This document shows, piece after piece, positions 54,791 to 61,326 of a stretch of DNA of 64,000 bases. The notes under the pieces were generated by a model, which ran no database searches, was not told the origin of the DNA, and saw only the letters and a program-made list of their open reading frames with translations. The DNA is from Ceratobasidium sp. AG-K (lineage: Eukaryota > Basidiomycota > Agaricomycetes > Cantharellales > Ceratobasidiaceae). The translations under genes were made by a program, and so were the position numbers. Numbering within the stretch: position 1 is the first letter of the stretch; the number at the start of each line of letters is the position of its first letter. The stretch spans positions 1,612,001 through 1,676,000 of the forward strand of contig JAWNGF010000003.1 of assembly GCA_037039685.1 (NCBI GenBank), read 5' to 3'.

Positions 54791-56920
54791 ATGTCGAGCA
54801 TAGAATTGATCAACCCAAAGGCGGAGAGCGTTCGACGCGCCGCCGCTTTGCAGGTGGGTATATTCGCTCCGACTATTGCTACCTGCTCATTTGACGTAGG
54901 TCAACACCAATGGAGCGATGGGTCTCGCCAATGTGGTCAAAGGAAATTTGGGTATGGACATGGTTTATCTTGGGATGTCGCGTCTAAAGCTATGTATACA
55001 GGTCCTAGAGGGACAATCAAAATGCTGGTGGACGGAGCTGGAAATATTAAAATGACCAAGGCAAGTGGGTACCTTGAATCAATTTTGCTCTGCTTACCGA
55101 GATGGTTTAGGATGGAAAAGTATTGCTATCCGAGATGCAAATCCAGGCAAGTCAAGTATATCCACTCTTTCTGTCAATCTAACATGGCGCAGAACCCCAC
55201 AGCGGCAATGATCGCGCGCACTGCAGTTGCACAAGATGACCAAGTCGGAGATGGCACTACCTCTGTGGTACTTTTGGTCGGCGAACTCTTGAAGCAGGCC
55301 GACCGCTACATCTCGGAGGGTGTGCATCCTACTGTAATTGCAGAGGGATTCGATCTCGCCAAGAAGGAGGCGTTGGAGGTGGGTCTCAGTGCAAAGAAAC
55401 CCGGCTAGTCTGACTCTCGTCCAGTTCCTTGAAACCTACAAAATCCCTAGCAAACTCGATCGCGCTCAGCTTATTTCTGTGGCCCATACCTCCCTTTCCA
55501 CCAAACTGCACCCCCGACTCGCCACGCAACTCGCACCCGATATCGTCGATGCGGTGCTTTGCATTCGTCCTCCGCCACCTGCCGAGGGTGCCACTGGCAT
55601 CGACGCAATCCGGGAGCCCATTGATTTGCACATGGTCGAAATCATGAAGATGCAACACAGGACAGACTCGGATACCCAGCTTGTTCGAGGGTTGGTCCTC
55701 GACCACGGCGCGAGACATCCGGACATGCCAAAGAGGGTCGAAAATGCGTTTATCCTGACTCTGAACGTGAGTCTCGAGTACGAAAAGACGTGAGTGCTTG
55801 TGTGATGTTGCGGAACTACTCATAACCCGAGCAGCGAGGTCAACTCTGGGTTCTTTTACTCGTCTGCAGACCAACGCGAGAAGCTCGTCGAATCAGAACG
55901 CCGTCACGTCGATGCCAAGCTCAAAAAGATTGTCGAACTCAAGAACTTGGTGTGCGACCAAGCCGTCGGAGCCAATGAGAAACCCAAAGGTTTCGTTGTA
56001 ATTAGCCAAAAGGGTATAGACCCTCTGTCTCTTGATGTTCTCGTTAAAAACGGCATCTTTGCGTTACGGCGCGCCAAGCGGAGAAATATGGAGCGGCGAG
56101 TTGCTTGATTCTGCTTCTGCATGCTTTGATGCTAAACCCACCTGTAGCTTGCAGCTGATTGCCGGAGGTGTGGCACAAAACTCGGTCGATGACCTCACAC
56201 CCGATGTCTTAGGCTATGCCGGCCTGGTTTACGAACATACCCTGGGCGAAGAGAAATACACGTTTGTCGAAGATGTCAAGGAACCCAAGGGTGTAACGCT
56301 GTTGATCAAAGGTAAATTGACCGCTCTGTCCTATTGCCCATGCTCATGCGTGTAGGCCCGAATGCGCACACCATTGCACAGATTCAAGACAGCTTGCGCG
56401 ACGGCTTGCGTGCGGTCAAAAATGCCATCGAGGATGAGCACTTGGTGCCAGGTGCTGGTGCGTTCGAGGTCGCCTGTGCAGCCCACCTGTCCGGCCCGGT
56501 CAAAAAGGCCGCCAAAGGCCGCACCAAGTTGGGTGTGCAAGCATACTCGGATGCGCTTTTGATCATCCCGAAGACCCTTGCGGCGAATGGTGGATTCGAT
56601 GTTCAAGATGCCATTGTTGCAGTCCAAGTATGTCCGGCAGTTGAAAGCTCAATGGATGCTGACTAGCACAGGACGAGCAATCATCGGGCAACATTGTTGG
56701 AATTAATCTGACGAGCGGCGAGCCGTTTGATCCTACCGTCGATGGTGTCTGGGATAACTATCGCGTTAAGCGACAAATGCTGCATTCATGGTGAGCAGAT
56801 TCGTTGTCTAATCTTCATCGGCTAACCCTTTACAGTTCTGTGATTGCCGTGAACCTTCTTTCGACGGATGAAATTTTGAGGGCAGGTCGGTCTAGCTTGA
56901 AGCCGGATGGCGCTCAGTAG
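54791..56920 (+). CDS. CCT6: Cytosolic chaperonin CCT subunit zeta
   Basis: [20 protein letters not shown] begins at 54791. Spliced blocks are [59 protein letters not shown] (GDGTT nucleotide-binding motif), [80 protein letters not shown] and [40 protein letters not shown] marks subunit zeta. CCT folds actin and tubulin. One intron, 56096..56147 (52 bases), begins GCGAGT, a GC donor; it joins RRNMER to LQLIAGG in frame. Another 5' exon boundary lies within the first 60 codons. The stop TAG is at 56918-56920, and CPA1 follows on the same strand. Confidence 0.93.
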
Positions 56921-57113
56921 AGCGACAAGTACACAACCGATAATGATTATTATATGCGTTTCTGCTCGAGTGAAATCCAAATATAGAAGTATGAGATTGT
57001 GCGAGTTTTGCGCCGGGTCACGTGCGCGGTATCTCGGCCGAGTCATTAAACTCGCAAAAACTGAATCCGACGTCAACCTTGAAATCTTCCCAGTGCAGCG
57101 GGGTTTCTTGTAC

Positions 57114-57233
57114 ATGCCCTATCTCCTGAACACAAGGAACGAGTATGTCAAGACGCTGCACCCCTCGTGCGCCGCTGACCTAAAATTTCACAGCTATCTT
57201 TCCGATCTCATCTTTTCGCTCCTCGGTCACTAG
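57114..57233 (+). promoter_or_regulatory. Upstream ORF of CPA1: arginine attenuator peptide (AAP)
   Basis: ATG 57114 opens a short frame. A 51-base intron (57143..57193: donor GTATGT, branch-like CTGAC, acceptor CACAG) splices GA to C, creating an Asp codon and the core D-Y-L-S-D, then L-I-F-S-L and stop TAG 57231-57233. The product is 22 residues. In the yeast and Neurospora AAPs, arginine makes this peptide stall the ribosome at the stop and lower CPA1 output. Their core (DYLSDHLW / DYISDHIW) and the 12 residues between core Asp and stop are matched here, with Phe at the Trp position. The CPA1 ATG lies only 8 bases beyond the stop. Confidence 0.85.
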
Positions 57234-57241
57234 AATCAGCC

Positions 57242-58558
57242 ATGTCCTTCTTCGTTCGCAATCGTACAGCAAAACCTCTCCTCAGCCTCATCCGCCAGTA
57301 TGCTTCTCACGCAAATCCACCTGCGGTATTACATCTCAAGACGGGCCAGTCGTTCTCTGGTCATTCATTTGGTGCGCCGCGTAGCATTTTTGGCGAAACC
57401 GTGTTTTCTACTTCCATTACTTCCTGTAAGTTCTGGACATCCTTGACTGTAATTTACTGATCGCGCACAGATACCGAGTCTATGACCGACCCATCATACC
57501 GCGGTCAAATTTTGGTGTTCACCACCCCGTTGATCGGCAACTATGGCGTCCCCAACAACAAGACCCCTGTTGACTCTCAAGATGTCGGCGTACTTCTCGA
57601 GTCTCAGGGCATCCAATGCGCCGCCGTTGTGGTAGCCGATGTTGCCGAGCGATTCTCTCACCACCAGGCAGTCGAGTCGCTGGCTGACTGGTGCAAGCGA
57701 CACAATGTCCCTGGCATTACCGGTGTTGATACTCGTGCCGTCACTCGCTTGCTGCGTGACCAGGGCACGACTCTTGGACGGATCGCCATTGGGCCTGATT
57801 CGACGCTTCCTCCACCCCAAGAGTCAGAGTACTGGGATCCTTCCAAGGAAAACCTCGTAGACCAGGTTTCGACGCGCGAAGTGTACACGCTCAACCCTTC
57901 GGGGGACATCAAGATCGCCGTTCTCGATTTTGGTGCCAAGGCCAACATTACTCGTTCGCTCGTTCGTCGGGGCGCAGCCGTGACCGTCTTTCCCTGGAAC
58001 TATGACTTCAATAGTGTCCGTGACCAATATGATGGACTGTTCTTGTCCAACGGCCCTGGCGACCCAATGCAATGCATCGACGCTGCGATGAAGCTGCGAA
58101 CGACGATCCAAGAGTGGAATCGGCCGGTGTTTGGTATTTGCATGGGGCACCAGATTATTGGCATTGCCGCCGGTCTCGAGGCATATCGCATGACGTTTGG
58201 GAACCGTGGGCACAATCAACCTGTGCTTGCGCTCGCCAACTCGGGCTCGATCAAGGCTGGCCGTGTCTATGTAACAAGGTCAGTACGAGTAGAGCTTTGT
58301 GTGCTTGTACTCATTCGCTCCAGCCAAAACCACCAGTACGCATTGACGTTGCAAGACCCATTCCCGCAAGACTGGGAGCCTTTCTTTATCAACTGCAACG
58401 ACTCGTCGGTCGAAGGTATCAAGTCGACGACCGAGTCGGGGAAACAGGTGTGGGGTGTTCAGTTCCACCCCGAGAGTGCGGGAGGCCCGTTGGACACGAT
58501 TGAGATGTTTACTGATTTTGTTGATACCTGTCGCGCTGGAAAGGCAGCGCGTGTGTAG
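57242..58558 (+). CDS. CPA1: Arginine-specific carbamoyl-phosphate synthase, small (glutaminase) subunit
   Basis: MSFFVRNRTAKPLLSLIRQY is a likely mitochondrial presequence. The N-terminal CPSase domain follows (VLHLKTGQSFSGHSFGAPRS, TSYTESMTDPSYRGQILVF), then NVPGITGVDTRAVTRLLRDQ and the class-I glutaminase: IAVLDFGAKANITRSL, FLSNGPGDPMQC, FGICMGHQIIGIAAGLEAYR (nucleophile Cys) and GVQFHPESAGGP (His and Glu). It takes ammonia from glutamine and passes it to the large subunit to make carbamoyl phosphate for arginine. Two introns were read: after ACTTCCT (donor GTAAGT, about 57427) and after ACAAG (donor GTCAGT, about 58279). Both keep frame (SYTESM; TSQNHQYAL). The stop is at 58556-58558. Output is probably controlled by the AAP uORF just upstream. 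Confidence 0.95.
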
Positions 58559-59113
58559 TTTCTCATAATTCTCGAATTGATTAGTCCTTGGTTCAGTAGT
58601 GGGGTGGCATTGTGTCCTGAATATATGCACTGACTCGGGCTGTTTACACTCTTGCCCATATCACATAACTGAAACATCACCTTTTGCACCCTTGGTCTCC
58701 GAGGAAAGATCTTAGGGGTAGGGTTGGGGTGGTCGTCCTGGGACTCGCAAACCACGTATTTACCTAGTGTAGCTTCCTCAGCTTCATAGTTTCGAAAAAT
58801 TAAATCCTTAGTGCAATTGAGCTCAGTATATTAATAGTCATTTTCCGATTACCTTTGAGTCATTTTATGTAGCTTATACAATAACATCCATTTGCTCTGT
58901 GCAATTGGATACCCTCGGCCGTATTGAATCACTTGGGACGCGGGATGCTGTTTCGTTACAACCTGCAATCATGAAGTGGACTGACATGGTCATCCCACAT
59001 ATGGGCTCGGGCAATAACCAGTTTCTATACAGGCGTATATACACTTAGAATGTAATTTTTTTACGAGTTGAAATAACGTCAAATCCTTGGGGACGTAAAA
59101 AGAGCAAAACGTT
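58559..59113. other. Intergenic region after CPA1
   Basis: This is AT-rich sequence between CPA1 and the tRNA gene. The minus-strand frame 58459-58755 is antisense to CPA1's end and not convincing. A T-run at 59058-59062 sits 52 bases downstream of the tRNA 3' end and could aid Pol III termination. Confidence 0.4.
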
Positions 59114-59208
59114 GGCCCGAACCCAGGATTGAACTGGGGACCTCGCCCATTATGTAAACAGCTAAGCTGCTTCCCTAAGGGCGAATCATACCACTAGACC
59201 ATCCGGGC
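59114..59208 (-). tRNA. tRNA-Pro (anticodon AGG) with a ~22-base intron
   Basis: Read on the minus strand, the acceptor GCCCGGA pairs with TTCGGGC. The D arm GGTCTAGTGGTATGAT, the anticodon stem CGCCC/GGGCG with loop TT-AGG, and the T arm CCCAG-TTCAATC-CTGGG all fold properly. The anticodon AGG is at 59176..59174. An intron of about 22-23 bases (around 59173..59151) follows the base after the anticodon, the standard nuclear position. The internal promoter boxes (A: TGGTCTAGTGG; B: GTTCAATCC) are present. The terminal CCA is not encoded. Confidence 0.9.
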
Positions 59209-60046
59209 TTGCATCTTGTTACTTATTGTCCTTTATGACATTTTGCCACATTGCGGGTGTATGCTTGTCCCCTTGAGCTTTGTCACACACACCCCTTGAG
59301 TCATTATTGACTGAACAAGCATTGATACTCACTCAGCAGCCACGGCCACAAAGTAACGGTTAACAGCACGTGGATAAGAATACAACCTCGGCGTTACTAT
59401 GCGTTAAAGTTGGCATACGAGCGGAAAGACTGCCCTAGTATCCATTGGCCCGAGCCAAGTATTCTTGCATATTCCCAGGAAGTTGGTCAAGCAATTATTC
59501 AAGGTAAGCATGGAAGGGGCCAATCAACGCACTGAAAGGAATGTATGCGCTTGCCTGAAGGGGTGGGCTGGTCTCCTGAACCTTGACTACCTCCAAGATC
59601 GTCGTGGGAAGTTTAAAGTGTGTTAGCTTGACTAGAGGTACACGGTACAGCAATCTCACAAATAACGATGACTTCCTCATCATATCTCTGTTTTCCTTTT
59701 TTGCTAGGTGGCAGGATAGCAGGCGGCGAGTCCGCGGCACGTTTAGATGGAGCCTGAAGGAAGCACTTGAGTGTCACAGCAGAGGAAGAACTGGAGTAAG
59801 ATTCTACTATTTTTTCAACGTGCGTGCTAGATCGGGTATGGTTCAGATTGATTGGCGTGTTCAAAAGCGACAATTTTTAAGTATGGCTGTTTGTTTGCGA
59901 ATGTCGCCACTGCGCCACCTGGCTCCAGTTTAGTCAAAGGTGTACCCAAACTGTCTAGCCCTACCATAATCTCAATTGCATAATTTTACAACTAGATGAA
60001 GTATAAATTACCGTGGCATCCAAACATACATAATCAGAGATAACCG
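59209..60046. other. Intergenic region between tRNA-Pro and the RNase H2 subunit B gene
   Basis: Minus-strand frames (59613-59873 and 59495-59740) include coding-like stretches such as KRAADSPPAILPPSKKGKQR and LPTTILEVVKVQETSPPL. They could be exons of a small unrecognised gene, but I could not join them with confidence. Confidence 0.3.
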
Positions 60047-61326
60047 CTAAGCCTTTTTAACAAAGAACGTGTTGAGCGTCGACATGCCCTTGGTGTCGGC
60101 CTTCTTGAGCTTGTCCACCCCACGAGACGTCTGCGGTCCCGCCTTGCGCTTTTCGCCTGCACCCTTTCCTTTACCCCCCTTTCCAGCCTCGGCTGCTTCA
60201 GCGCGAGCAATTGCTGCGGCTTGTTCAGCACGCGCATGTTCGGCCTGTATAGCAGCATGCGCTGTATACGCGGATATGCTAAACGACGTGGATCAGTTTG
60301 GTTCGCGCCTGGTTAGAGTAGCCAACTCACTCGTACGTAGCCAACGCTTCTCCTAGTAACCCCTCTTCCACCCAAGTTCCAACAACTTCGCTCGCAATTT
60401 TGATACACGTGGCCGTACGTATGGACTGCGCCTTGGGGTCGTCTAATGGACCAAGCTCAGAGACAGATAGTCCGAGGCGGAGGTGTTGCCTATGGAGGGT
60501 TGGGTAGGCAGGGCCGGGCTTGGTGAGGTCTGGCTCTTCGTTTTGGTCCGGCTGGTCGGTATACCGTTGTGAAGCTGCCACACGGTCTATTCGTCGCTTG
60601 AGAAACGCAATAATACTCTCGTTTGAAGGTCGCTGGACAGTAATATCAGGCGGGATGTCTATGCAGAACATTAGATTTGCACGGTGCTAAAACACAATGG
60701 GTACCCTTTTGTCTCGCACAACTGTTTAAGCGCCTGATGAACGCAATCAAGAGCCATAAACGTTGTAACATCCGCTTGGTCTATTTCTGGCGGTGAATAG
60801 CTCGCTGCGAGTTCCTCTATTAAATCATCTGTCGGTTTAAACGGTGTTTTAGGCTCCTGAATAATCGTTCAAGTAAGTCCTTGGATGTGACGAAAAGACG
60901 AACAATTGCGAGGAGGGCTCTGAGAAATGGAATGAGAACAAACGCTGGATCAATGGGGGTCATAAGTAGCAGCTTTCCATCTAGTGGTTTGTTAGTCATG
61001 GTGAGAAAGCATAGTAGAGTCGGCTTGCCTGAAACAACGGATTGGCCAACAAACCACGAGCGGGTCGCATCAGGCGCTATTGCATGAAGCTCTAGCAAGG
61101 ATTTCCCATGAGGGACAAACAAAGCCGGTAGTCCTATCTATGATTGAGTATGATGTATGGCGATGGGACCAAGACTCACCTGTACGAGGGTGGGGGAGTC
61201 TCAGTGCACAAAGTGATACCGCTGGCTGTGATAAAGTACTTTGGACATCTTGAAGATTGATTAGTACATCTGACTTGATTTTAACTTGCTCATACCTTTT
61301 GGAAGTACGGCGACGTGTGTGGACAT
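60047..61326 (-). CDS. Ribonuclease H2 subunit B (Rnh202/Ydr279 family)
   Basis: ATG 61326 begins MSTHVAVLPK, spliced to VQSTLSQPAVSLCALRLPHP and LPALFVPHGKSLLELHAIAP. Next come KLLLMTPIDPAFVLIPFLRA, the hallmark hydrophobic strand/helix of subunit B, and FKPTDDLIEELAASYSPP, VTTFMALDCVHQALKQLCET and ITVQRPSNESIIAFLKRRID. The basic C-terminus is Ala-rich and Lys/Gly-rich and ends KGMSTLNTFFVKKA, a PCNA-interacting (PIP-like) box at the same place as in the human subunit. RNase H2 removes ribonucleotides from DNA; subunit B scaffolds the complex and ties it to replication. The stop is at 60047-60049. It points away from the CLC gene. Confidence 0.87.

What the first reader, a model, noticed from the sequence alone, without database searches (positions are those of the whole stretch)
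57114..57241. Arginine attenuator peptide uORF 8 bases from the CPA1 start codon
The spliced 22-residue frame carries D-Y-L-S-D and stops exactly 12 residues after the core Asp, as in the yeast and Neurospora AAPs. The Trp important in those peptides is Phe here, and the basic residue after it is Ser. The uORF stop and the CPA1 ATG are only 8 bases apart. That is too short for normal reinitiation, so CPA1 must be reached by leaky scanning, which suits control by stalling at the stop codon.
Basis: partly seen in the sequence, partly recalled or inferred. Interest (0 to 1): 0.85.

Follow-up and report, generated by a model that had tools for sequence, protein, structure and literature searches.

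The report
Arginine-sensing leader peptide of fungal CPA1
Just ahead of a fungal arginine-making gene lies a tiny spliced reading frame that looks like the known peptide that stalls ribosomes when arginine is plentiful, but with one important residue changed and an intron cutting through its key codon.

Summary
Exons 57114-57142 and 57194-57233, joined over a 51-nt intron, encode MPYLLNTRNDYLSDLIFSLLGH, stopping 8 nt before CPA1. CPA1 is a carbamoyl-phosphate synthase small subunit. The D-Y-L-S-D core lies exactly 12 residues before the stop, as in the Neurospora arginine attenuator peptide (AAP; PDB 2xl1). None of 20,000 shuffled leaders reproduced even a loosened motif.

I read it as a divergent AAP uORF: arginine makes the nascent peptide stall at UAG 57231, with the stalled ribosome lying against the CPA1 AUG. 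A basidiomycete AAP is already known (Cryptococcus, PMC7049704), so the kind is not new.

What differs: Phe replaces the Trp reported as critical, Ser replaces the basic residue, the spacer is 8 nt, and the intron splits the core Asp codon (GA|C). Keeping the intron leaves the frame open but puts Ser where Asp must be, so only spliced mRNA can encode the sensor; whether that is used is untested.

'Must be leaky scanning' is plausible (weak upstream AUG context) but overstated. No transcript, footprint or related leader could be examined here.

The parts
57114..57142 (+). uORF exon 1: ATG CCC TAT CTC CTG AAC ACA AGG AAC GA; weak AUG context (TAC before, C after)
57143..57193 (+). 51-nt intron, GTATGT donor, CTGAC branch-like site, CACAG acceptor, phase 2, cutting the core Asp codon GA|C; open in the uORF frame if retained
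   Evidence: only candidate intron in the leader by my splice model; splicing itself not observed
57194..57233 (+). uORF exon 2: completes Asp10 and encodes YLSDLIFSLLGH, stop TAG 57231-57233 (predicted stall site)
57234..57241 (+). 8-nt spacer AATCAGCC between uORF stop and CPA1 start
57242..58558 (+). CPA1, carbamoyl-phosphate synthase small subunit (arginine-type by homologue names), 408 aa; exons 57242-57425, 57471-58278, 58324-58558
   Evidence: PF00988 E 3.8e-44, PF00117 E 5.4e-41; TIGR01368 391.5 bits against cut-off 307.35
57040..57045 (-). TGACTC, core of the Gcn4/CPC1-type site (label recalled); 68 nt lie between it and the uORF ATG
   Evidence: string match only; by my own arithmetic about 0.16 expected by chance in 320 bp

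Best explanation
A divergent arginine attenuator peptide uORF controlling CPA1. Shown by sequence: a 22-codon uORF (if spliced as modelled) with the AAP core at the AAP distance from its stop, directly before CPA1. Inferred: most scanning 40S subunits pass the poorly placed uAUG and start at CPA1. Those that initiate at the uORF make the peptide. When free arginine is high, the nascent chain in the exit tunnel blocks peptide release at UAG 57231. Because the spacer is only 8 nt, the leading edge of the stalled 80S should lie on or against the CPA1 AUG, so it both blocks scanning subunits behind it and covers the start codon. Stalled termination 192 nt before the next exon junction would also expose the mRNA to nonsense-mediated decay. 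Low arginine lets termination proceed and CPA1 be made.
For: Exact anatomy. Null: 0 of 20,000 shuffles, and tight motif unique in the window. N. crassa AAP sequence confirmed as PDB 2xl1; alignment with N. crassa and the recalled yeast AAP keeps D, Y, S, D of the core in all three. Downstream gene is CPA1 by Pfam, NCBIfam and close fungal homologues. A conserved AAP, strong uORF ribosome occupancy, low main-ORF translation and a 5-fold rise in upf1-delta are reported for the Cryptococcus CPA1 homologue, a basidiomycete (PMC7049704, passages). Yeast D13N removes the arginine effect, and leaky scanning is concluded (PMC7969011, passages). uAUG context is weak and the main AUG has G at -3.
Against: Phe instead of the Trp reported as critical (PMC3130931, passage) and Ser instead of Arg/Lys. 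No relative's leader could be read, so purifying selection on the frame is not shown. No transcript start, splice or footprint data. The frame stays open for 70 codons upstream of the uATG, with an in-frame AUG at 56991 (A at -3); a start there would give a longer and less leaky uORF.
Confidence: 0.75

Rival explanations
1. Homologous but weakened: the uORF descends from the AAP but, with Phe for Trp and Ser for Arg/Lys, no longer responds (or responds weakly) to arginine, and acts only as a modest constitutive uORF.
For: Asp12, Tyr13, residue 14 and Trp19 are listed as critical in N. crassa (PMC3130931, passage); the Trp is changed here.
Against: Asp, Tyr, Leu, Ser, Asp and the exact stop distance are all kept, and the change is to another aromatic residue; unconstrained drift would not be expected to spare just these.
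Confidence: 0.18
2. The functional uORF is longer: transcription starts upstream of 56991 and the in-frame AUG at 56991 begins an N-terminally extended AAP (63 residues after splicing) with the same C-terminus. This can hold together with the main reading.
For: Frame open for the 70 codons before the uATG, seen in 2.7% of 5,000 shuffles; AUG 56991 has A at -3.
Against: The TGACTC site at 57040 and CACGTG at 57019 look like promoter elements downstream of 56991 (labels recalled); no other sign that this stretch is coding was tested or seen.
Confidence: 0.1
3. Chance resemblance in an untranscribed or differently spliced upstream region.
For: No expression data were available.
Against: 0 of 20,000 shuffles and uniqueness of the tight motif in the window, right before the gene type where AAPs are known.
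Confidence: 0.03

Closest known systems
Neurospora crassa arg-2 AAP (24 aa, PDB 2xl1)
   Same: uORF of the same gene type; D-Y-L-S-D core; 12 residues from core Asp to stop
   Different: Trp19 is Phe, Arg20 is Ser, His17 is Leu; different N-terminus; the N. crassa spacer length and introns were not checked here
Saccharomyces cerevisiae CPA1 AAP (25 aa, sequence recalled; the name D13N in PMC7969011 agrees with Asp at 13)
   Same: D-Y-(I/L)-S-D core, same distance to stop, leaky scanning to CPA1
   Different: Trp and Lys (recalled) are Phe and Ser here; the yeast uORF has no intron (recalled)
Cryptococcus CPA1-homologue AAP (CND01050; PMC7049704, passages)
   Same: basidiomycete; AAP uORF before the CPA1 homologue; ribosomes occupy the uORF; NMD-sensitive
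   Different: peptide sequence not available to me, so the Trp and any intron could not be compared

Membership tests
Fungal arginine attenuator peptide (AAP) uORF | uORF directly upstream of the arginine-type carbamoyl-phosphate synthase small-subunit ORF | tested here: met
   (by sequence; transcript not seen)
Fungal arginine attenuator peptide (AAP) uORF | Core Asp-Tyr-(Leu/Ile)-Ser-Asp | tested here: met
   (in the spliced frame; splicing inferred)
Fungal arginine attenuator peptide (AAP) uORF | Stop codon 12 residues after the core Asp | tested here: met
   against PDB 2xl1
Fungal arginine attenuator peptide (AAP) uORF | Trp seven residues after the core Asp (reported as critical for stalling) | tested here: not met
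   Phe17; importance from PMC3130931 passage. Whether Phe occurs in other basidiomycete AAPs could not be checked, so it is filed as a variant and not as a plain member
Fungal arginine attenuator peptide (AAP) uORF | Basic residue after that Trp | tested here: not met
   Ser18
Fungal arginine attenuator peptide (AAP) uORF | Poor uAUG sequence context, allowing leaky scanning | tested here: met
   context only: U at -3, C at +4; initiation rate not measured
[quoted passage not shown]
   needs cell-free toeprint or ribosome profiling
Fungal arginine attenuator peptide (AAP) uORF | Conservation of the frame among related species | tested here: inconclusive
   no fungal relative's DNA was reached: 0 loci, one match in its own genome by DNA search, peptide too short for the protein search

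The most novel reading that the evidence does not exclude
A splice-gated arginine sensor. The intron cuts the one codon (core Asp, GA|C) whose change to Asn removes the response in yeast. Spliced mRNA encodes DYLSD; mRNA that keeps the 51-nt intron has the same start and stop, no stop inside, and encodes a 39-residue uORF ending in SYLSDLIFSLLGH, predicted blind to arginine. Regulating this one splice would switch CPA1 between arginine-repressible and arginine-independent modes. Against: in-frame length and an open frame come together by chance in roughly one case in six (1/3 for length by my arithmetic, 0.51 open in 5,000 shuffles).
Probability: 0.07. Interest if true: 0.75.

Novelty: new variant of a known kind. 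Interest (0 to 1): 0.42.

Why it matters
If it works, it shows that the arginine arrest peptide tolerates Phe in place of the Trp reported as critical, with an 8-nt spacer that puts the stalled ribosome on the next start codon, in a fungal lineage (Ceratobasidiaceae, by CPA1 similarity) far from the model yeasts. It also offers a natural test of which side chains matter for arginine sensing in the exit tunnel, and of whether splicing can turn a nascent-peptide sensor on and off. If it does not work, it is an example of sensor decay.

Tried and rejected
Comparative evidence was sought and not found. The CPA1 relative P0001 gave no confirmed loci in viral contigs (5 pattern matches, none confirmed) or genome contigs (46 pattern matches, none confirmed); neither collection is fungal. 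The own genome has one match to the gene by DNA search. The AAP alignment was too short for the protein search. The PDB search with the 22-mer gave only one weak hit to an unrelated human-type factor chain (6cyt_C, E 0.29) and did not itself find 2xl1; the N. crassa AAP did. The exact string GACTACCTCTCCGAC occurs twice elsewhere in the genome, as often as its reversed control; those places were not examined. Text search for DYLSD found one paper, unrelated by its title. The RNA structure of the leader is unremarkable (z -0.38; 64 of 200 shuffles fold as well), so an RNA-level switch is not favoured. The bacterial promoter/terminator scan is not informative for a fungus. Rfam gave two matches in 56500-60500, both below their gathering scores and neither in the leader. 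A chance origin was rejected on the shuffles. In one search I first drew the intron one base too far right, giving Glu in place of Asp; corrected.

Full report
What is there. The window lies in a 53.6-Mb, 17-contig genome. The downstream gene encodes a 408-aa carbamoyl-phosphate synthase small subunit with a CPSase small-chain domain and a class-I glutamine amidotransferase domain. Its best protein match by E-value is from Ceratobasidium sp. AG-Ba (89% identity over 99%); the second is an unnamed 356-aa protein from a short contig (93% over 87%); the other named ones of the 120 listed, out of 7,999 hits, are from many Agaricomycetes. So the organism is most likely a member of Ceratobasidiaceae (inference). 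Several homologues are named arginine-specific. The N-terminus (MSFFVRNRTAKPLLSLIRQYASH) looks like a mitochondrial presequence (inference). DNA search of the own genome found one place only.

The uORF. ATG 57114 opens exon 1 (57114-57142). A 51-nt intron (57143-57193) has a GTATGT donor, a CTGAC branch-like site followed by 14 nt that end in CACAG, and a length near that of the two CPA1 introns, 45 nt each. Exon 2 runs to TAG 57231-57233. The peptide is MPYLLNTRNDYLSDLIFSLLGH. The spacer to the CPA1 ATG is 8 nt.

Is it more than chance? I shuffled the 321-nt leader 20,000 times, keeping dinucleotides, and looked in unspliced and model-spliced frames for the AAP core at the right distance from a stop with an in-frame ATG before it. 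None had the tight motif and none the loosened one. Across the window, both strands, unspliced frames and 324 candidate introns, the tight motif occurs only here; the loose one has one other match, unspliced and on the minus strand. The motif was chosen knowing the candidate, but it is the motif of the known peptide, and the place is right before the gene type where that peptide belongs.

Comparison with known AAPs. Core and distance to stop agree exactly. After the core the N. crassa residues His17, Leu18, Trp19, Arg20, Ala21, Asn23 and Ala24 are Leu, Ile, Phe, Ser, Leu, Gly and His here; Leu22 is kept. A review lists Asp12, Tyr13, residue 14 (printed as Lys; Leu in 2xl1) and Trp19 as critical (PMC3130931, passages). 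The primary papers that I asked for (Hood 2007, Spevak 2010, Wei 2012, Wu 2012, Fang 2004) are not held, so I could not see whether Phe has been tested or occurs in other basidiomycetes. That a basidiomycete CPA1 gene has an AAP uORF that represses is in print for Cryptococcus (PMC7049704, passages). Four searches of the held library bore on novelty: 'arginine attenuator peptide' with 'basidiomycet' (2 papers), 'uORF' with 'carbamoyl phosphate synth' and 'Agaricomycet' (0 papers), 'Rhizoctonia solani' with 'upstream open reading frame' (20 papers, 10 listed, none looked relevant by title) and 'arginine attenuator peptide' with 'intron retention' (3 papers). In these listings, and in the passages that I read of some of the papers, I saw no description of this uORF or of an AAP codon split by an intron; several listed papers were not opened, and the library lacks most subscription papers.

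How it most likely works. The uAUG context is UAC-AUG-C and the main AUG context is GCC-AUG-U. Leaky scanning is therefore the likely route to CPA1, as concluded for yeast (PMC7969011, passages). With UAG in the A site, the P-site codon is 57228-57230. Taking a usual footprint reaching about 15 nt beyond the first P-site base (recalled), the stalled ribosome ends near 57243, on the CPA1 AUG itself. So here a stall would cover the start codon as well as block scanning. The uORF stop lies 192 nt before the first CPA1 exon junction, so NMD is expected as well (inference; NMD sensitivity is reported for Cryptococcus). None of these steps was observed here.

The intron. It falls in phase 2 inside the core Asp codon, GA|C. 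Its 51 nt are divisible by three and hold no stop in frame, so the retained form runs MPYLLNTRNEYVKTLHPSCAADLKFHSYLSDLIFSLLGH with Ser at the Asp place. In yeast Asp-to-Asn at this place removes the arginine effect. This makes a splice gate possible, but in-frame length (1/3) and an open frame (51% of 5,000 shuffles) together are not rare, so it is only an idea to test.

Open points. The frame is open for 70 codons before the uATG (2.7% of 5,000 shuffles), and AUG 56991 lies in it with A at -3. A TGACTC core at 57040 (minus strand) and CACGTG at 57019 hint that transcription starts after these, which would leave 57114 as the first AUG. The region 57046-57260 has no unusual RNA structure (z -0.38; folded as unspliced RNA).

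Verdict. Very likely a real AAP-type uORF, and as far as the searches above show not described for this lineage, with a departure at a residue held to be critical. The kind is known, which limits the interest; the Phe, the 8-nt spacer and the intron-split Asp codon make it a useful natural variant.

Noticed in passing
56904-57113 (+): The uORF frame is open for the 70 codons before ATG 57114, with in-frame ATGs at 56907, 56943 and 56991; 2.7% of 5,000 shuffles are as open.
   Followed up: partly
59114-59208 (-): A tRNA gene with a 23-nt anticodon-loop intron, missed by the bacterial-mode scan and found by ARAGORN with introns allowed. It is called Tyr(ata), but the arm also reads as an intron-bearing Pro(AGG), which I think likelier (recalled resemblance). 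Rfam's only match there is a sub-threshold plastid 5'UTR family on the other strand.
   Followed up: partly
56020-56666 (+): Upstream neighbour is a TCP-1/cpn60 chaperonin family gene: 2 of 3 reading frames tested match PF00118. By my reading it ends at the stop 56918-56920, leaving 193 nt to the uORF ATG.
   Followed up: partly
57019-57074: CACGTG (57019), TGACTC (57040, minus strand) and GACGTC (57069) lie within 56 nt upstream of the uORF; they look like amino-acid-control and bHLH/bZIP sites (labels recalled).
   Followed up: no
57145 (+): If the intron is kept, it brings an out-of-frame AUG with a 12-codon frame ending at 57183.
   Followed up: no
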